The position numbers and the translations under genes are program-made. This document shows positions 47 to 10,754 of a DNA stretch of 24,048 nucleotides, piece after piece. Source of the DNA: Deltaproteobacteria bacterium (GTDB taxonomy: Bacteria > Campylobacterota_A > Desulfurellia > JAGGSF01); NCBI GenBank assembly GCA_021159235.1, contig JAGGSF010000022.1:1-24048 (forward strand). The letters run 5' to 3'. The notes beneath the pieces were generated by a model, which was given only the letters and a program-made list of their open reading frames with translations, searched no databases and was not told the origin of the DNA. Position 1 is the stretch's first letter, and every line of letters begins with the position of its first letter.

Positions 47-634
47 TTGCTTGTAATAGTCTATGCTGTAGGTATCTTTACTTTATTCCCTGCTATAAAA
101 CAGGATATCAAATACAGTTTTAATATACCAGATAAAAAAACGGAAAAGTTAAATGTTTTGTGGAAGCTTTCTCAAAATCCCTATCTTTTCTGGTTAGCAT
201 CTTCAAAATTCACCTATCTGGGAACACCTTACTATCTTCAGCTTACCACAGGTAAAAAATATCTGCCCAGAATTAAAGAAGATATAAAAAACAAAAAGAT
301 GACGCAAGAAGAGATAAAAGAATCCGAAATTTTAAAACAAAGACTTCTTATCACTTCTAAGAAATTAGAAAAACTCCACAAGATATGGCTCTCCGAATAT
401 TATCTGGGAATGGCATATCTATTCAACGGAAATATAAAACAGGCAAAATCTCATGCCAGAGCTGGCATAGAGATGAATCCAAACTCCAATGCCTTATGGA
501 CACTCTTGCACTTTTGTAATATAAAATTAGCCTCTAAAAAAACAGGAAAACCTGTTGTTTATTTTCTTCCTTCTAAAAAAGAGGTAGAACTTTTGAGAAA
601 ATCATTTGAAGAACAGATAAAAAGATTTAAATAA
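47..634 (+). CDS. membrane-anchored TPR-like protein, possibly 5'-truncated
   Basis: Hypothetical protein of 195 residues if read from the TTG at 47. It opens with a short hydrophobic stretch (residues 2-17), followed by a basic, helical, soluble region. Residues about 114-147 look like a single tetratricopeptide unit (LSEYYLGMAYLFNGN, then a helix ending in NPNS). I do not recognise a specific family. The TTG start has no visible Shine-Dalgarno sequence, and the membrane segment is short. In another frame the preceding bases (12-53) encode a basic peptide beginning NQKKTTRIPYKL, as expected for the cytoplasmic flank of a membrane anchor, so a frameshift or sequence error near 44-50 is possible. 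It ends 56 bases before argB, which has its own promoter. Coding is likely; the start and function are uncertain. Confidence 0.6.
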   Translation: MLVIVYAVGIFTLFPAIKQDIKYSFNIPDKKTEKLNVLWKLSQNPYLFWLASSKFTYLGTPYYLQLTTGKKYLPRIKEDIKNKKMTQEEIKESEILKQRLLITSKKLEKLHKIWLSEYYLGMAYLFNGNIKQAKSHARAGIEMNPNSNALWTLLHFCNIKLASKKTGKPVVYFLPSKKEVELLRKSFEEQIKRFK

Positions 635-645
635 AACCAGAACGC

Positions 646-674
646 TTGACTTTCAATATGTCAAAGTTTATTGT
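646..674 (+). promoter_or_regulatory. promoter of the argB operon
   Basis: TTGACT at 646-651 and TATTGT at 669-674 are separated by 17 bases. The predicted transcription start near 681 gives a leader of about 10 bases before the argB ATG at 691. A short inverted repeat, TTGAC (646-650) and GTCAA (660-664), overlaps the -35 box and spacer and could be an operator half-site pair. This is inferred by eye. Confidence 0.5.
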
Positions 675-690
675 GTGTAGGAATTGAGAA

Positions 691-1527
691 ATGAGTAAAA
701 AAAGGGTTGAGATTCTCATAGAGGCGTTGCCCTACATAAGAAAGTTTTACGAAAAGGTATTTGTAATTAAATATGGGGGTAGTGCCCGGAAAGAATTGGA
801 GAGCTTTTGTGAAGATGTTGTTCTCCTGAAATATGTAGGAATAAACCCTGTAGTGGTGCATGGTGGTGGACAGGAAATAAGTGAAACACTAAATAAGTTG
901 AGGATGACAACGACTTTCCATAAGGGATTGAGGGTAACCGATGAGAAAACGATGGAAATAGTAACTATGGTTCTGGCAGGCAAGATCAACAAACAAATTG
1001 TAGCATCTATAAACAGTATAGGTGGAAAGGCAATCGGTATAAGTGGAACAGACGGAAAACTTATAAGAGCAAGGAAAAAGACTACAGATGTAAATCTGGG
1101 ATATGTAGGAGAAATCGCAGGCATTGACCCTTTACCTGTAGTAACCATCTCTAAAGCCGGATACATCCCTGTAATTTCTCCCATTGGTTCTGGTGAGGAT
1201 GGTAAAGATTACAATATCAATGCAGATACAGTGGCAAGTGGAATAGCCATAAGCTTAGAAGCAGAAAAACTCATTTATCTTACAGATACGGATGGAATAA
1301 TGGATAAAGATGGAAACAGGGTTTCTTCTCTCACCGCAGAACAAGCAAGATTCTTTATAGAAAAAAACATAGTGCAGGGAGGAATGATTCCTAAACTGGA
1401 AGGTGCTATCGGTGCAGTTAAAGCAGGTGTAAAAAAATGTCACATTATCAACGGCAAAAAGAAACATGCCCTCTTAGAAGAGATATTCACTAAAAGTGGT
1501 GTGGGAACGGAAATATGTCTGAATTAA
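691..1527 (+). CDS. argB: acetylglutamate kinase
   Basis: Catalyses ATP-dependent phosphorylation of N-acetyl-L-glutamate, the second step of arginine synthesis, in the cytoplasm. The 278 residues match the amino-acid kinase family throughout: VIKYGG with Lys27, the HGGG loop at 57-60, GLRVTD (79-84) in the substrate site, NINADTVASG, and LIYLTDTDGI in the nucleotide site. The usual GGNAM after the first glycines reads GGSAR here. An N-terminal helix precedes VIKYGG and the C-terminus carries SGVGTEI; both are hallmarks of arginine-inhibited NAG kinases, so feedback inhibition is likely (family inference). AGGA lies about 9 bases before the ATG. The gene leads an operon with galT-like, glgA and a two-component pair, and overlaps the next gene by 13 bases. 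No other arginine gene is in the window. Confidence 0.96.
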   Translation: MSKKRVEILIEALPYIRKFYEKVFVIKYGGSARKELESFCEDVVLLKYVGINPVVVHGGGQEISETLNKLRMTTTFHKGLRVTDEKTMEIVTMVLAGKINKQIVASINSIGGKAIGISGTDGKLIRARKKTTDVNLGYVGEIAGIDPLPVVTISKAGYIPVISPIGSGEDGKDYNINADTVASGIAISLEAEKLIYLTDTDGIMDKDGNRVSSLTAEQARFFIEKNIVQGGMIPKLEGAIGAVKAGVKKCHIINGKKKHALLEEIFTKSGVGTEICLN

Positions 1528-2528
1528 GAAAGGATTTTTTATCCGAAAGATGGGTAATTATCTCTACTGAAAGGGGGAAAAGACCAACGGATTTTAAGGT
1601 AGAGAAGACAAAAAGGAAGGGTGGTTTTTGTCCTTTTGATCCAGGAAATGAGAAATATGTCCCACCAGAGATATATGCAGTGAGAAAACCGGGAAGTGCC
1701 CCGAATGATCCCAACTGGGAACTGAGGGTAGTGCCAAACAAATTCCCTGCACTGGGGATTGAAGGAGAACTGGGCAAGCGTGGTATAGGCATGTACGATA
1801 TGATGAATGGCATAGGAGCACATGAAGTGATAATTGAAACACCCAACCACGATGAAACAATAGATACCATGCCTCTTCATAGGGTGAAAAATATTGTTAT
1901 TGCATATAAGGAGCGCATTGCCGACCTGCATAAAGACAGAAGAATGAAATATGTTTTAGTATTCAAGAATTTCGGTGCTTTAGCTGGTGCCTCCTTAGAG
2001 CATTCCCATTCTCAACTCATTGCCCTCCCTATTTTACCCAAGAGGGTAAGTGAAAATTTAAAGGGAACAGAAAGATATTTTGGATACAGGGACAGATGTC
2101 CAATGTGCGACATGCTACAGCAAGAGCTTTATTCACAGGAAAGAATTGTTGAGGAAAACGACAGTTTTGTATCTCTATGTCCTTTCGCCTCCCGTTTCCC
2201 CTTTGAAATGCAAATAATACCCAGGGAACACCAAACCCATTATGAACAGCAGGACGAGAAAACATACGATGATTTTGCGAAAATTTTAAAATCTACGATA
2301 AAAAGATTGTCTAAAGCCTTAGATAACCCCCCTTACAACCTTGTTCTTCAGAATGCACCGTTTACAGAAAAGTGTGACGAATACTACCATTGGTTTTTAG
2401 AAATTATGCCCAGACTGACGCGGATAGCAGGCTTCGAATGGGGAAGTGGATTTTATATCAATCCCACACCACCAGAGGAAGCAGCAAAATTTCTGAAAAA
2501 TCTCACTATTGATCAGGAGGAGTTATGA
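1515..2528 (+). CDS. galT: galactose-1-phosphate uridylyltransferase family (GalT-like; possibly ADP-glucose phosphorylase)
   Basis: A 337-residue HIT-superfamily nucleotidyltransferase. The catalytic signature is HSHSQ at 163-167 (HPHGQ in E. coli), with His165 the expected uridylylated nucleophile. By alignment to E. coli the zinc ligands would be Cys39, residue 42, His112 and His163, but residue 42 is Asp (CPFD) rather than Cys. A further CPMC lies at 195-198 and a C-terminal EYYHWFLEIMPR at 289-300. Family activity is exchange between a hexose 1-phosphate and UDP-glucose. Because the stop overlaps the glgA start by 4 bases and no galK or galE is nearby, an alternative is the related ADP-glucose phosphorylase activity acting on the glycogen precursor. 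The family call is firm; the substrate is open. Confidence 0.88.
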   Translation: MSELRKDFLSERWVIISTERGKRPTDFKVEKTKRKGGFCPFDPGNEKYVPPEIYAVRKPGSAPNDPNWELRVVPNKFPALGIEGELGKRGIGMYDMMNGIGAHEVIIETPNHDETIDTMPLHRVKNIVIAYKERIADLHKDRRMKYVLVFKNFGALAGASLEHSHSQLIALPILPKRVSENLKGTERYFGYRDRCPMCDMLQQELYSQERIVEENDSFVSLCPFASRFPFEMQIIPREHQTHYEQQDEKTYDDFAKILKSTIKRLSKALDNPPYNLVLQNAPFTEKCDEYYHWFLEIMPRLTRIAGFEWGSGFYINPTPPEEAAKFLKNLTIDQEEL

Positions 2529-3973
2529 AAATTTTACTGGTCTCACCAGAAATTTTTCCTTTTTCTAAGACGGGAGGACTGGCCGATGTAGCAGGAGCAT
2601 TGCCCAGGGCTCTACAGAAAAATGGCATGGAAGTGAAACTTATCTCACCAAAGTATAGGTGTGTAACGGAAAAGGATTTCTCCTTGGAACCAGTAATCGG
2701 AGACCTGAAAGTGCCGATAAAGAATACAATAGAAAGTGCTTCTCTATGGAAAACAGATTACAATGGAATGGAAGCCTACTTTATAGGGAAAGATGTGTAT
2801 TACAACAGGGAAGGGTTGTACGGAATAGAAGGAAGAGATTATGAAGACAATGCAGAAAGATTTGCATTTTTCTGTAGAGCTGTTATTGAATCCTGCAGGC
2901 AAACAGGATACAAACCGGACATCATTCACTGCAATGACTGGCAATCGGGACTCATACCTGCATACCTGAAAACCCTGTACAAAGATGACCCATTCTTCCA
3001 CCATACAAAAACTGTGTTTACAATCCACAATATCGGCTACCAGGGCTTGTTTGAACCCGGTCTTTTACCCATGACAGGCTTGCCCCAGAGTGTTTACAAT
3101 ATGGAAGAATTGGAATTCTATGGAAAGATAAATTACCTGAAGGCAGGCATAGTCTTTTCGGACATTATAACCACCGTAAGCAAAACTTATGCAGAAGAGA
3201 TACAAACCAAAGATTACGGAGCGGGATTGGATGGTGTTTTGAGAAAGAGAAGAAAAGATTTATATGGCATAATGAATGGGATTGATTATGAAAAATGGAA
3301 TCCTCAAACAGATCCCTTAATTTATGTAAACTATACATACAGAAAAATATCCGCACGAAAGAGAAATAAAAAAAATCTGCAAAAAGAGATGAAACTCGCA
3401 TATAGAGATTACCCATTGATAGGAATAATCAGTAGACTTGCCACACAGAAAGGAATAGACATTGCTGTTTCTGCTATGCAAACATTACTAAAAAAGCACC
3501 AGGTGGAGTTTATTATCCTGGGTGAAGGAGACAGGCAATATGAAGATGCATTGCAAAGTATCTCCAGAAAATATAAAAATAGGGTATCTGTAAATATAGG
3601 ATTTGATGAGGCACTGGCCCACAAAATATACGCATCCTGCGATTTCTTCCTTATGCCTTCTCTATATGAACCATGTGGATTAGGTCCTCTTATTGCTTAC
3701 AGGTATGGCGCTATTCCTGTAGTAAGAGCAACAGGCGGACTAAAGGACAGTGTAAAGAATTTTAATCCTAAAAAGAAAGAAGGCACCGGTTTCTCATTCA
3801 GAGCATACACCGAAGATGCCCTTTACAGGACTATGGAAAAAGCACTATACTTATACAACAATGATAAAGAGACATTAAATAAAATAATAAAACAGGATAT
3901 GAAGATGGATTGGTCATGGGAAGAACAAGCTAAGAAATATATTAGGTTATACAGAAGAGCAATAAAAAGATGA
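2525..3973 (+). CDS. glgA: glycogen synthase (ADP-glucose type, GT5)
   Basis: Transfers glucose from ADP-glucose to the non-reducing end of alpha-1,4-glucan. The 482-residue length is normal for bacterial GlgA. The N-terminal KTGGLADVAGALPRAL (15-30) is the family's sugar-nucleotide signature. NDWQSGLIPAYL follows at about residue 138, and the GT-B C-terminal domain shows SRLATQKGID and the retaining glycosyltransferase region LYEPCGLGPLIAYRYG. The start has a strong Shine-Dalgarno sequence (AGGAGG) inside the end of the preceding gene and overlaps it by ATGA. Its own stop overlaps the following histidine kinase by 4 bases. No glgC, glgB or glgP is present in the window. Confidence 0.96.
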   Translation: MKILLVSPEIFPFSKTGGLADVAGALPRALQKNGMEVKLISPKYRCVTEKDFSLEPVIGDLKVPIKNTIESASLWKTDYNGMEAYFIGKDVYYNREGLYGIEGRDYEDNAERFAFFCRAVIESCRQTGYKPDIIHCNDWQSGLIPAYLKTLYKDDPFFHHTKTVFTIHNIGYQGLFEPGLLPMTGLPQSVYNMEELEFYGKINYLKAGIVFSDIITTVSKTYAEEIQTKDYGAGLDGVLRKRRKDLYGIMNGIDYEKWNPQTDPLIYVNYTYRKISARKRNKKNLQKEMKLAYRDYPLIGIISRLATQKGIDIAVSAMQTLLKKHQVEFIILGEGDRQYEDALQSISRKYKNRVSVNIGFDEALAHKIYASCDFFLMPSLYEPCGLGPLIAYRYGAIPVVRATGGLKDSVKNFNPKKKEGTGFSFRAYTEDALYRTMEKALYLYNNDKETLNKIIKQDMKMDWSWEEQAKKYIRLYRRAIKR

Positions 3974-6686: not shown

Positions 6687-7611
6687 TTTCCATATACCAC
6701 CGAGCTGTTTCTTTGAAGCCTTTTTCAATTGTATAGGAAGGAACAAAACCCGTCTTTAAAAAGAGGCGAAATGAATTGCATACCCATTTTTTCTGCACAA
6801 AATCCCTCATCTTATCTACGGTAAGAACAGGTTCATATTTAAAAATTTTGGAAAAGACTCTGGAGCAGTAAGCAAGAACATAAGGTGAAAACTCGGGAAA
6901 TCTTATTACCTTCCCCTTCACATTCACACTGTCGAGTAAAACCCGAGCGGCATATCCCCAGGTATAGATGTGATTATCCGAAAGCTGAAAAATCTCTGGT
7001 TCAGGACTGTTTCTGTCTATGAGCAGACTTATCGCTTTTGCCACATCTTTTACATAAACAAGACTGATATACCTTTCTCTTCTCAAAATAGGGACTGTAC
7101 CCTTTTTAGCCATCTTAAAATAGAAATACATCTCTCTATCGTAAGGACCGTAGATGACTGCCGGTCTAATAATGCTTATCTGCAATCCATCTTTATGTTG
7201 CAAGAGTTTCTTCTCAGCCAGAAGTTTTGACCTTCCATAATGAGAAACAGGATTTTCAACAGAAAGACTGCTCACATATATAATCTTTTTAACACCACAT
7301 AATTGCGAGGCACGGGCTAAATTCTCCGTTCCTGTAACATTGGATGTGTAAAATTCGCTATTTTCATTTGTTTTTATAAGACCTGCTATGTGAATGACAA
7401 CATCTATACCTTTTAGGGCAGAATATACCTTTTCCCTATCTCTCAGATCCGCTATACGCAATTCAACGTTCTTCCCCCATATCTCTTCTGCTTTTTCTCT
7501 ATTTCTGACCAGAGCTATGCATTCCCTGTCTTCTTTACTCAACCTGTCTATAACATTTCTACCCACAAAGCCCGTGGCACCCGTTATGAGTATTTTTACC
7601 TTTTCCACCAC
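6673..7611 (-). CDS. NAD(P)-dependent epimerase/dehydratase (extended SDR)
   Basis: A 312-residue extended short-chain dehydrogenase/reductase. The Rossmann motif GATGFVG is at 11-17, an NAD-binding IADL follows at 53-56, and the catalytic set is Ser114/Ser115 in YVSSLS with Tyr125 and Lys129 in YGRSK. The C-terminal substrate-binding half resembles nucleotide-sugar epimerases and sterol-dehydrogenase-like proteins, but no residue fixes the substrate. It sits between the zinc-ribbon protein gene (16-base overlap at its start) and mtnA (14-base overlap at its end), so the three are co-translated. Confidence 0.88.
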   Translation of the reverse strand: MVEKVKILITGATGFVGRNVIDRLSKEDRECIALVRNREKAEEIWGKNVELRIADLRDREKVYSALKGIDVVIHIAGLIKTNENSEFYTSNVTGTENLARASQLCGVKKIIYVSSLSVENPVSHYGRSKLLAEKKLLQHKDGLQISIIRPAVIYGPYDREMYFYFKMAKKGTVPILRRERYISLVYVKDVAKAISLLIDRNSPEPEIFQLSDNHIYTWGYAARVLLDSVNVKGKVIRFPEFSPYVLAYCSRVFSKIFKYEPVLTVDKMRDFVQKKWVCNSFRLFLKTGFVPSYTIEKGFKETARWYMENDWL

Positions 7612-8066
7612 ACTCTCACCGCTTTTACACCCGCTTTATACTTTATTTCCAGCTCACCCTTGTATGCTCTTGCCAGAGCCTTCCCTATGCGAGCAGCTAA
7701 ATGTTCAAATGTAGTGTAGATAACCATCTTTCCCTTCTCTACATCTTCTTCTATCTTTCCCACTCTTCTTAAGGGATTTACCCTTTGCGTCTTTTCTTCT
7801 TCATTTCTTATGAGATTTTTAATCTCCTCGTTTTTTGTTCTTACCAGATCACTATTTATGCGCAACACTCCAGCAAAATACTTATCCCTTATACATCTGC
7901 AGGCAGGACACAGCTCCATATTCACTTCTCCTTCCGGTTTTTCTTCCAATCTTTTCCACTTTCCGCCTGTAAATACCAATCCACATTCAGGGCAAACTGT
8001 GGGTTCCTTGTACTTTTTATTTTTCAAATATAACCGTCCCCTTGCAGGATACAAATTCGTTTTCAT
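7596..8066 (-). CDS. small zinc-ribbon-like protein, possibly BCAM0308 family
   Basis: A 156-residue protein with two CxxC pairs, Cys25/Cys28 (CPECG) and Cys53/Cys56 (CPACR), forming a probable zinc ribbon around GGKWKR. A mixed alpha/beta C-terminal half follows, with an HLAARIGKALARAYKGE helix near 122-139 and a strongly basic end. The pattern reminds me of small proteins annotated BCAM0308 family, and the zinc region loosely of NMD3; both are recollections, not searches. The function is unknown, though a nucleic-acid or ribosome-associated role would fit the basic charge and ribbon. GGGAG precedes the ATG, and its promoter faces that of the TPR lipoprotein. It leads the operon to the SDR and mtnA genes. 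Confidence 0.8.
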   Translation of the reverse strand: MKTNLYPARGRLYLKNKKYKEPTVCPECGLVFTGGKWKRLEEKPEGEVNMELCPACRCIRDKYFAGVLRINSDLVRTKNEEIKNLIRNEEEKTQRVNPLRRVGKIEEDVEKGKMVIYTTFEHLAARIGKALARAYKGELEIKYKAGVKAVRVWWKR

Positions 8067-8888: not shown

Positions 8889-9653
8889 TCAGGCACTTTC
8901 TACTTTGTTCTTGAGAGTGCCTACACCCTCTATAGAAATTTCTACCTCATCACCTGCATTGAGAGGACCTACACCCTCCGGTGTCCCGCTCGCTATCACA
9001 TCACCTGGCAAAAGCGTCATGATTTTAGAAATATAAGAAACAAGCTCATAGACATTGAATATCATATGAGATGTAAATGAATCCTGTTTTATCTTTCCGT
9101 TTACATATGTAACAATGTGAAGATTTAAGGGATCTACATCTGTTTCTACCACATCTCCTATGGGACAGAAGGTATCAAAACCCTTAGCCCTGGTCCACAC
9201 TCCATCTGACCTCTGTAAGTCTCTTGCAGTTACATCGTTGACAATGGTATATCCAAATATACAATCTTTAGCTTCCTCTACATCCACATTTTTAGTGATT
9301 TTTCCTATAACAATCCCCAGTTCCCCTTCATAATCAACCCTTTTTGACATATGGACTGGATATATGATTGCCTCTCCTGTTCCTATAACACTGGTGGAAG
9401 GTTTCATAAATATCTTCGGTGCAGCAGGCTTTTTATCTTTCATCTCTCTTATGTGCCCGGCATAATTTAAACCTATACCTATAATCTTTGAAGGCGTAAC
9501 AGGACTTAGAATTTTTACCTCTTCAAGGCTATATATCTTTTTGGTGTATATTAAAGGTTTTTCAAAAGGTAGCCCCGAAATTTCTGCAATATCTTTTCCA
9601 TTCAAAACACCGTAGCTGATTTTATCATCCCTTTCAAATCTCACGAATTTCAT
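8889..9653 (-). CDS. fumarylacetoacetate hydrolase family protein
   Basis: A 254-residue FAH-fold enzyme with a short N-terminal domain (1-50) and the catalytic domain. Metal ligands by family pattern are Glu109 and Glu111 (YEGELG) and Asp140 (GYTIVNDVTARD). IIGIGLNYAGHI (57-68) and RAKGFDTFCPIGDVV (155-169) are typical of the acylpyruvase / 2-hydroxyhepta-2,4-diene-1,7-dioate isomerase branch. Members cleave acylpyruvates, decarboxylate oxaloacetate or hydrate dienoates, and sequence alone does not separate these. A good Shine-Dalgarno sequence, AAGGAGAG (complement of 9659-9666), precedes the ATG at 9653. It stands alone, diverging from the Cas6-like gene. Confidence 0.9.
   Translation of the reverse strand: MKFVRFERDDKISYGVLNGKDIAEISGLPFEKPLIYTKKIYSLEEVKILSPVTPSKIIGIGLNYAGHIREMKDKKPAAPKIFMKPSTSVIGTGEAIIYPVHMSKRVDYEGELGIVIGKITKNVDVEEAKDCIFGYTIVNDVTARDLQRSDGVWTRAKGFDTFCPIGDVVETDVDPLNLHIVTYVNGKIKQDSFTSHMIFNVYELVSYISKIMTLLPGDVIASGTPEGVGPLNAGDEVEISIEGVGTLKNKVESA
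8891..8922. terminator. hairpin at the TPR/FAH convergent junction
   Basis: AGGCACTTTC (8891-8900) pairs with GAGAGTGCCT (8913-8922) as a 10-bp stem with one wobble pair and a 12-base loop. It lies 10 bases after the lipoprotein stop and covers the last codons and stop of the FAH gene. Neither side has a T tract, so an intrinsic terminator is only one reading; an mRNA 3'-end stabiliser is another. Confidence 0.35.
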
Positions 9654-9762
9654 AACATCTCTCCTTACATTTCAAACATATTTTCACCTTTAATTTACAT
9701 CATATATGTTCTACAATATTAACACAGTCTTAAAATGAATGTAAGAGGGTCTTCTGTTTAAT
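9654..9762. other. divergent intergenic region between the FAH and Cas6-like genes
   Basis: A 109-base AT-rich gap that must hold promoters for both divergent genes. On the plus strand TACAAT at 9712-9717 is the best -10 candidate, but its -35 is poor. On the minus strand TATGAT (9704-9699) is a possible -10 without a convincing -35. Direct repeats typical of CRISPR are absent. Confidence 0.3.
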
Positions 9763-10671
9763 ATGTATAGTTTTAAGTTGCCTGTTAGAAAATTCATTGT
9801 TTCACTGAAATTCATCAAAAAACACTATCTGCCAGATTTTTCAGGTATAATTCTGAGAAGTGCGTTTGGTGTTGCTTTAAAGAGGGTATCCTGCATCTTT
9901 AGAGGCAGAGATTGTAAACATTGCCCTTTAAGAGATAGCTGCACCTGGATTTACCTTTTTGAAACACCTATTGAGAAAAATAATCGTTATTTGAAAGGGA
10001 GAAATTACGCACCACATCCCTTTGCTTTAACCCCATTACATTCAACAGATAACAGTCTTGTTTTTGAGCTTTTACTTGTGGGAAAAGGCATAAATCATTT
10101 ACGCTGGATATGCGCTGCATTTTCCATCCTGCAGGATATGGGAATAGGGAAAAGGAGGGTAAAATTCAAAATAGAGGATATTAAGGAATATTTACCAGAC
10201 GGAACAAAAAAATCTGTTCTGAGTGATTTTGATTATGATAAAAAACCATTTTTACTGGAAGATTTTGTTGAATATCGTCTGAGAAATTTTAACAAGGATA
10301 AGTTGAATGTCCATTGCATTACACCTCTAAGGATAAAAGATAGAGGAAAATACACAGACCAGATTACATTCCCTGTCTTTTACAGGGCATGCCAGAGAAG
10401 AATAAGGATATTATCTGAATTTAACGGTGCAAAATACAGATATATTGAGGATATACGGGACGATATAGGTGCTTATCTGCAAAACAGTCGCTGGTATGAG
10501 CTTGCAAGGTATTCCGTAAGACAGAGAACATATATGAATATGGGCGGTGTGGTGGGAGACATCTCGTATATCGGGAATTTTAAAGAGTATCTCCCTGCAA
10601 TCTTTGCAGGGGAATTCCTATGCATAGGTAAAAATACAAGCTTTGGATTGGGGAGGTTTGAAGTAAAATGA
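9763..10671 (+). CDS. stand-alone Cas6-like RAMP protein
   Basis: A 302-residue protein with the architecture of the Cas6 precursor-crRNA endoribonuclease family (PF10040 type). The N-terminal part has GIILRSAFGVALKRVSC followed by CX6CX2CX5C (Cys44, Cys51, Cys54, Cys60) and WIYLFE. The C-terminus ends in the ferredoxin-fold, glycine-rich region GVVGDISYIGNF, then AGEFLCIGKNTSFGLGRFEV, which is characteristic. Known members cleave CRISPR repeat RNA, but no repeat array and no other cas gene lies in this window; the neighbours are an FAH enzyme and a TRAP transporter. It may serve a distant array in trans or have another RNA target. The catalytic residues of this branch are not obvious; His21 and His53 are candidates only. 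An imperfect ribosome site (GAGGG) is about 13 bases upstream. Confidence 0.82.
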   Translation: MYSFKLPVRKFIVSLKFIKKHYLPDFSGIILRSAFGVALKRVSCIFRGRDCKHCPLRDSCTWIYLFETPIEKNNRYLKGRNYAPHPFALTPLHSTDNSLVFELLLVGKGINHLRWICAAFSILQDMGIGKRRVKFKIEDIKEYLPDGTKKSVLSDFDYDKKPFLLEDFVEYRLRNFNKDKLNVHCITPLRIKDRGKYTDQITFPVFYRACQRRIRILSEFNGAKYRYIEDIRDDIGAYLQNSRWYELARYSVRQRTYMNMGGVVGDISYIGNFKEYLPAIFAGEFLCIGKNTSFGLGRFEVK

Positions 10672-10696
10672 AAATTCCTGAATATATTAAAAACTG

Positions 10697-10725
10697 TTGA
10701 AATTTTATCCCATTCATTGTATCCT
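10697..10725 (+). promoter_or_regulatory. candidate promoter of the TRAP transporter operon
   Basis: TTGAAA (10697-10702), 17 bases, TATCCT (10720-10725). The predicted start near 10732 gives a leader of about 23 bases carrying GGAGGGG. The -10 box is weaker than at the other promoters here. Confidence 0.4.
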
Positions 10726-10754
10726 GCTACATATCTTAAGCTGGAGGGGTGAAG

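What the first reader, a model, noticed from the sequence alone, without database searches (positions are those of the whole stretch)
9763..10671. Orphan Cas6-like RAMP nuclease without CRISPR context
The protein has the LRSAFG...CX6CX2CX5C N-terminal module and glycine-rich C-terminus of Cas6, but sits between metabolic and transport genes with no array and no cas gene in 24 kb. It may process arrays in trans, be a remnant of a lost system, or have been recruited to another RNA. This is the strongest candidate in the window for an unfamiliar function.
Basis: partly seen in the sequence, partly recalled or inferred. Interest (0 to 1): 0.6.

Follow-up and report, generated by a model that had tools for sequence, protein, structure and literature searches.

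The report
Cas6 left from eroded CRISPR locus
The gene is a genuine Cas6, the enzyme that cuts CRISPR RNAs, and it is most likely the last intact piece of a type III-A CRISPR locus that the bacterium's lineage has deleted from this spot, so it is ordinary rather than a new kind of nuclease.

Summary
The protein at 9763-10671 is a real Cas6, shown by Pfam, PADLOC and an AlphaFold model matching solved Cas6 chains (Z about 20). No other cas gene or array lies in the 24-kb window, which is a whole contig. Two comparisons explain the isolation. (1) The genome is not CRISPR-free: contig C60 carries cas1b, cas2b and a 29-repeat array, and C57 carries a type I-B cas6b whose frame is broken in the assembly. 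(2) Congeneric genomes show the FAA-hydrolase/TRAP-transporter site to be an eroded type III locus. One relative keeps a 5' cas6 fragment there. Another keeps a frame-broken Cas10/Csm1 start and a repeat-like sequence there, and its 85%-identical cas6 heads a cas6-csx20-csx1-cas1-cas2-cas2 operon elsewhere. Homology to that operon stops within bases of the stop codon. The gene is as diverged and as constrained (dN/dS 0.10-0.14) as its neighbours, so it was inherited vertically. At least 52 of 80 wider relatives lie beside type III effector genes. Best reading: a detached type III Cas6, perhaps cutting the remaining array in trans. Recruitment to an unfamiliar RNA has no support but is not excluded.

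The parts
9763..10671 (+). cas6, type III-associated Cas6 endoribonuclease (302 aa) with an N-terminal CX6CX2CX5C motif and a C-terminal glycine-rich loop
   Evidence: PF10040 50.7 bits; PADLOC PDLC01477 E 5e-70; AF2 model pLDDT 88, two beta-alpha-beta-beta-alpha-beta domains; best solved-structure matches are Cas6 chains, Z 16-20
9684..9762 (+). conserved leader of cas6 (TTTAATTTACATCATATATGTTCTACAATATT...), shared with the leader of cas6 in both congeners; likely promoter region
   Evidence: alignment of the three leaders; promoter role is inference
10669..10675 (.). right-hand break: homology to the G002 cas6 operon stops at the cas6 stop codon, and homology to the common flank upstream of dctP in G001 and G002 starts at 10673
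10673..10748 (+). ancestral right flank of the lost CRISPR locus, shared with both congeners and leading into dctP
8889..9653 (-). left syntenic anchor, fumarylacetoacetate hydrolase family gene
   Evidence: PF01557 E 1e-69; same anchor in G001 and at the end of G002 contig C22
10749..13569 (+). right syntenic anchor, TRAP transporter dctP-dctQ-dctM
   Evidence: PF03480, PF04290, PF06808; collinear in G001 and G002

Best explanation
The gene encodes an ordinary Cas6 pre-crRNA endoribonuclease of a type III (most likely III-A) CRISPR-Cas system that stood at this site, between the FAA-hydrolase gene and the dctPQM transporter, in the ancestor of this Desulfurellaceae genus. The rest of the locus (such as csx20, csx1, cas1, cas2, array, cas10/csm1 and the csm genes) was deleted or moved. 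In this genome the break fell just behind the cas6 stop codon and left cas6 whole with its own leader. In one congener the break cut cas6 after about 86 codons; in another the site keeps only a Csm1 start and a repeat-like sequence. Shown: Cas6 identity and predicted fold, synteny, remnants, vertical divergence and average purifying constraint. Inferred: that the protein is still made, that it cuts repeat RNA and leaves the usual 8-nt handle, and that in this cell it could act in trans on the I-B array of contig C60.
For: Cas6 profile and fold matches. The congener G002 has an 85%-identical cas6 heading cas6-csx20-csx1-cas1-cas2-cas2. G001 has a cas6 5' fragment at the same syntenic site. G002 has, at that site, a Cas10/Csm1 N-terminal piece (PADLOC Cas10 E 1.5e-5; BLAST to Cas10 residues about 10-80, E 1e-8) that is cut short, plus the sequence CTGTAAAAAGGGATTGAGAC, which looks like a repeat 3' end. 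The leader and right flank are shared by all three genomes. dS of cas6 (0.66 NG86 / 0.51 YN00) equals that of dctP (0.63/0.47), and dN/dS is 0.10-0.14 against 0.09-0.21 for neighbours. In 52 of 80 wider relatives type III effector genes lie nearby, and in 49 cas10 lies downstream on the same strand. In the same phylum, an Arcobacter cloacae plasmid has cas6 directly before a large gene and csm2-csm3-csm5.
Against: All three genomes are draft assemblies in 90-230 contigs, so missing effector genes could lie in unassembled or unbinned DNA. G002 carries its cas6 operon on a separate contig, so the ancestral gene order at the site is reconstructed, not seen. The dN/dS test is pairwise and averages over the time before the loss; it would not detect a recent loss of constraint. 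The clade (this genome and G002) has lost two near-invariant family histidines (H221 to N, H287 to C), which might alter activity, although both changes predate the orphaning.
Confidence: 0.85

Rival explanations
1. Present role, option 1 (compatible with the origin given above): detached but working Cas6 in trans. It is kept because it cuts the pre-crRNA of the I-B array on contig C60, whose own cas6b is broken.
For: The genome has cas1b-cas2b-array (29 repeats) on C60 and a cas6b that matches the Cas6b profile at 1-36 in one frame and 39-234 in another, so the window Cas6 is the only uninterrupted Cas6 ORF found. The I-B repeat ends in AATTGAAAT, similar to the type III repeat-like end ATTGAGAC. 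Lack of differential specificity between two Cas6 paralogues in a I-B/III-B genome is reported for Methanosarcina mazei (cited in PMC4041471).
Against: No Cas7, Cas3, Cas10 or RAMP effector was found to use the crRNAs. The cas6b frameshift may be an assembly error. No cleavage data.
Confidence: 0.35
2. Present role, option 2 (compatible with the origin given above): pure relic, an intact ORF with no remaining role that will decay as it has in G001.
For: The G001 copy at the same site is truncated at about 86 codons. No type III array or effector was found in this genome.
Against: Full-length ORF with every position that is at least 99% conserved in the family kept. Average dN/dS is 0.10-0.14, and no strongly conserved family residue is lost in this copy while kept in the G002 operon copy.
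Confidence: 0.4
3. Recruited to a non-CRISPR RNA (a host-RNA processing enzyme).
For: Cas6-3 of Sulfolobus cuts a repeat-like non-coding RNA (PMC4041471), so it is biochemically possible. A few relatives (L128, L135) also show no cas gene within about 9 kb on both sides.
Against: The gene is truncated at the same site in one of the two congeners, sits in a cas operon in the other, and the family's usual context is type III loci.
Confidence: 0.07
4. Not Cas6 but another RAMP (Cas5/Cas7-like) or a chance match.
For: TIGR01877 is below its cut-off.
Against: PF10040, PADLOC and fold all point to Cas6; annotated relatives are called Cas6.
Confidence: 0.02

Closest known systems
Cas6 of the cas6-csx20-csx1-cas1-cas2-cas2 operon of Desulfurellaceae bacterium RS_18_25 (JAGMDW010000060.1; L030/L097)
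   Same: 85% protein identity over full length, homologous leader, same lost histidines, same dS as the genomes
   Different: Sits at the head of a cas operon; the window copy stands alone
Type III-A locus of Arcobacter cloacae plasmid pACLO (NZ_CP053834.1; L179)
   Same: Same Cas6 family and phylum; the plasmid also carries a second, I-B Cas6 and csx20, like the two-Cas6 state here
   Different: cas6 followed by a large gene, csm2, csm3, csm5 and cas1; 29% identity
Marinomonas mediterranea Cas6 domain of Cas6-RT-Cas1 (PDB 6dd5)
   Same: Best structural match, Z 20.4, rmsd 3.4 over 244 residues
   Different: Fused to RT-Cas1; 14% identity over aligned residues
Sulfolobus solfataricus Cas6 paralogues (PMC4041471)
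   Same: Precedent for a genome with several Cas6 enzymes and for a Cas6 acting on an RNA outside the arrays
   Different: That genome retains several complete effector complexes

Membership tests
Cas6 (CRISPR pre-crRNA endoribonuclease) | Significant match to curated Cas6 profile | tested here: met
   PF10040 50.7 bits, cut-off 25; PADLOC Cas6 E 5e-70. The NCBIfam TIGR01877 equivalog cut-off is not reached
Cas6 (CRISPR pre-crRNA endoribonuclease) | Two RRM/ferredoxin-like domains (definition in PMC3150331) | tested here: met
   AF2 model pLDDT 88.4, pTM 0.88 with two beta-alpha-beta-beta-alpha-beta units; Z 16-20 to Cas6 chains
[quoted passage not shown]
   GKNTSFGLG 289-297 precedes the strand at 299-301; G289, K290, G295 and G297 invariant in 58 sequences
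Cas6 (CRISPR pre-crRNA endoribonuclease) | Cleavage of repeat RNA | not testable with these tools
   No biochemistry; family-invariant H85, R190, R213, S251 and R253 are kept
Type III-A CRISPR-Cas locus at this site | Cas10/Csm1 at the locus | tested here: not met
   Absent in this genome (PF22335 hit is a GGDEF protein). Only a broken Csm1 start at the same site in congener G002
Type III-A CRISPR-Cas locus at this site | RAMP effector subunits (Csm3-5) | tested here: not met
   PF03787: nothing over cut-off in the three genomes. Draft assemblies
Type III-A CRISPR-Cas locus at this site | Cognate repeat array | tested here: not met
   No match to the repeat-like sequence with up to 3 mismatches in this genome; the repeat-like sequence is a single copy in a congener, so the cognate repeat itself is inferred
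Type I-B CRISPR-Cas (elsewhere in the genome) | Cas1b, Cas2b, array, Cas6b | tested here: met
   Cas1b TIGR03641 484 bits, Cas2b, 29 repeats; cas6b present but frame-broken
Type I-B CRISPR-Cas (elsewhere in the genome) | Cas3 and Cas7 | tested here: not met
   No hit over cut-off for TIGR01587, PF05107 or PF01905

The most novel reading that the evidence does not exclude
After losing its type III complex, the retained Cas6 was put to work in a genome that has an adaptation module and an array but no recognisable interference genes, cutting either that array's RNA or a host RNA for a purpose other than defence.
Probability: 0.07. Interest if true: 0.55.

Novelty: new member of a known kind. Interest (0 to 1): 0.2.

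Why it matters
It shows erosion of a type III-A locus at one chromosomal site, with a different remnant in each of three congeners, and explains an 'orphan' Cas6 without a new function. It also warns that an orphan cas gene in a draft contig should first be checked against the rest of the genome and against the same site in relatives.

Tried and rejected
Looked for an array or cas genes in the window: none. Apparent Cas10 hits in the genomes are GGDEF response regulators or unrelated genes. Cas3-core hits are all below cut-off; the large ORFs there look like general helicases by size, not checked further. No relative in phage records; plasmid relatives are annotated cas6 in 10 of 11 cases, so no evidence that this copy rides on a phage or plasmid. 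A wide 7-sequence alignment was not conserved enough for a contig scan. A direct comparison of the I-B cas6b with the Arcobacter Cas6b gave no match in the output seen; the frameshift was established with PADLOC profiles instead. The second piece of the G002 Csm1 remnant found no Cas10 match, so only the first piece is claimed.

Full report
What is there. The ORF at 9763-10671 is a full-length Cas6 (302 aa). PF10040 gives 50.7 bits and PADLOC's Cas6 model covers residues 5-301 at E 5e-70; the narrower NCBIfam equivalog is not reached. An AlphaFold model from 58 aligned sequences is confident (pLDDT 88.4, pTM 0.88) and shows two beta-alpha-beta-beta-alpha-beta domains. Its best solved-structure matches are Cas6 proteins, led by the Cas6 domain of Marinomonas Cas6-RT-Cas1 at Z 20.4. 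That meets the definition of Cas6 given in PMC3150331. Every position that is at least 99% conserved among 77 relatives is kept in the window protein. Two near-invariant histidines (221, 287) are N and C here and also in the operon copy of G002, so they changed before this gene became isolated.

The genome is not free of CRISPR. The window is the whole of contig C14 in a 1.13-Mb, 122-contig assembly. Contig C60 holds cas1b, cas2b and an array of 29 repeats of GTTTTTACCCTACCTATGAGGAATTGAAAT. Contig C57 holds a second, type I-B cas6 whose first 36 codons lie in a different frame from the rest; this may be a real mutation or an assembly error. No Cas7, Cas3 or RAMP effector gene passes a cut-off, and the one hit over the cut-off of the Cas10 palm model is a GGDEF response regulator.

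The site is an eroded type III locus. Two other genomes of the genus are held. G002 is a Desulfurellaceae MAG by its record title. In G002 the 85%-identical cas6 heads cas6-csx20-csx1-cas1-cas2-cas2. In G001 the same syntenic site as the window, between the FAA-hydrolase gene and dctP, holds only the first 86 or so codons of cas6 followed directly by the common right flank. In G002 that same site holds the start of a Cas10/Csm1 gene, cut short, and just upstream CTGTAAAAAGGGATTGAGAC, which looks like the end of a CRISPR repeat. The cas6 leader is shared by all three genomes, and the right flank is shared from window position 10673 on. The simplest history is one ancestral type III-A locus here and a different deletion in each lineage. 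In the window lineage the deletion began right behind the cas6 stop codon. The gene order of the ancestor is reconstructed, because G002 carries its operon on a separate contig.

Inheritance and constraint. Cas6 differs between this genome and G002 by dS 0.66 (NG86) or 0.51 (YN00), the same as dctP (0.63, 0.47), so it diverged with the genomes and was not acquired recently. Its dN/dS is 0.10-0.14, within the range of its neighbours. This shows constraint over most of the divergence; it cannot show whether constraint continues after the loss.

Family context. Of 80 relatives from a collection of 84,980 species genomes, 52 have type III effector genes in the stretch fetched, 8 only adaptation or ancillary genes, 1 only an array, and 19 none, most of these near contig ends. 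In 49, cas10 lies downstream of cas6 on the same strand. Two (L128, L135) have about 9 kb on both sides without a recognised cas gene, so isolated copies of this family occur elsewhere. On plasmids, 10 of 11 matches are annotated cas6; of the seven regions opened, some are type III loci, some type I, and one shows no annotated cas neighbour.

How it most likely works. By family, the protein cuts repeat RNA within the repeat and leaves an 8-nt handle; this is established for Cas6 in general and inferred here. Its own complex and array are gone from the assembly. The one remaining array is I-B, its cas6b is broken in the assembly, and Cas6 paralogues can process each other's repeats (M. mazei, cited in PMC4041471), so action in trans is plausible but unproven. 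Whether that role, or simply slow decay, explains its survival is open; both are compatible with the data and neither is a new kind of system.

Noticed in passing
L029 (G000:C60) 151-3437: cas1b-cas2b followed by a 29-repeat array, with no open frame in the 150 bases before cas1 and no Cas3/Cas7 found in the assembly: an adaptation module and array without visible interference genes.
   Followed up: partly
L081 (G000:C57) 131-879: Type I-B cas6b whose codons 1-36 and the rest lie in different frames; mutation or assembly error.
   Followed up: partly
L030 (G002:C183) 233-1982: Cas1 of 385 aa with an apparent acidic insertion before its C-terminal part, followed by two different tandem cas2 genes.
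   Followed up: no
L078 (G002:C22) 7112-7743: An AbrB-like/PIN-like gene pair (toxin-antitoxin-like, by eye) sits next to the Csm1 remnant at the eroded site; an AbiE pair and another PIN-like gene flank the cas6 operon on C183.
   Followed up: no
window 7596-8066 (-): Small bacterial protein with a weak but above-cut-off match to NMD3 (PF04981, 27.9 bits), a family best known from eukaryotic and archaeal ribosome factors.
   Followed up: no
L128 and L135: Same-family Cas6 genes in a Syntrophaceae MAG and a Thermodesulfovibrio MAG with no recognised cas gene or array within about 9 kb on either side.
   Followed up: partly
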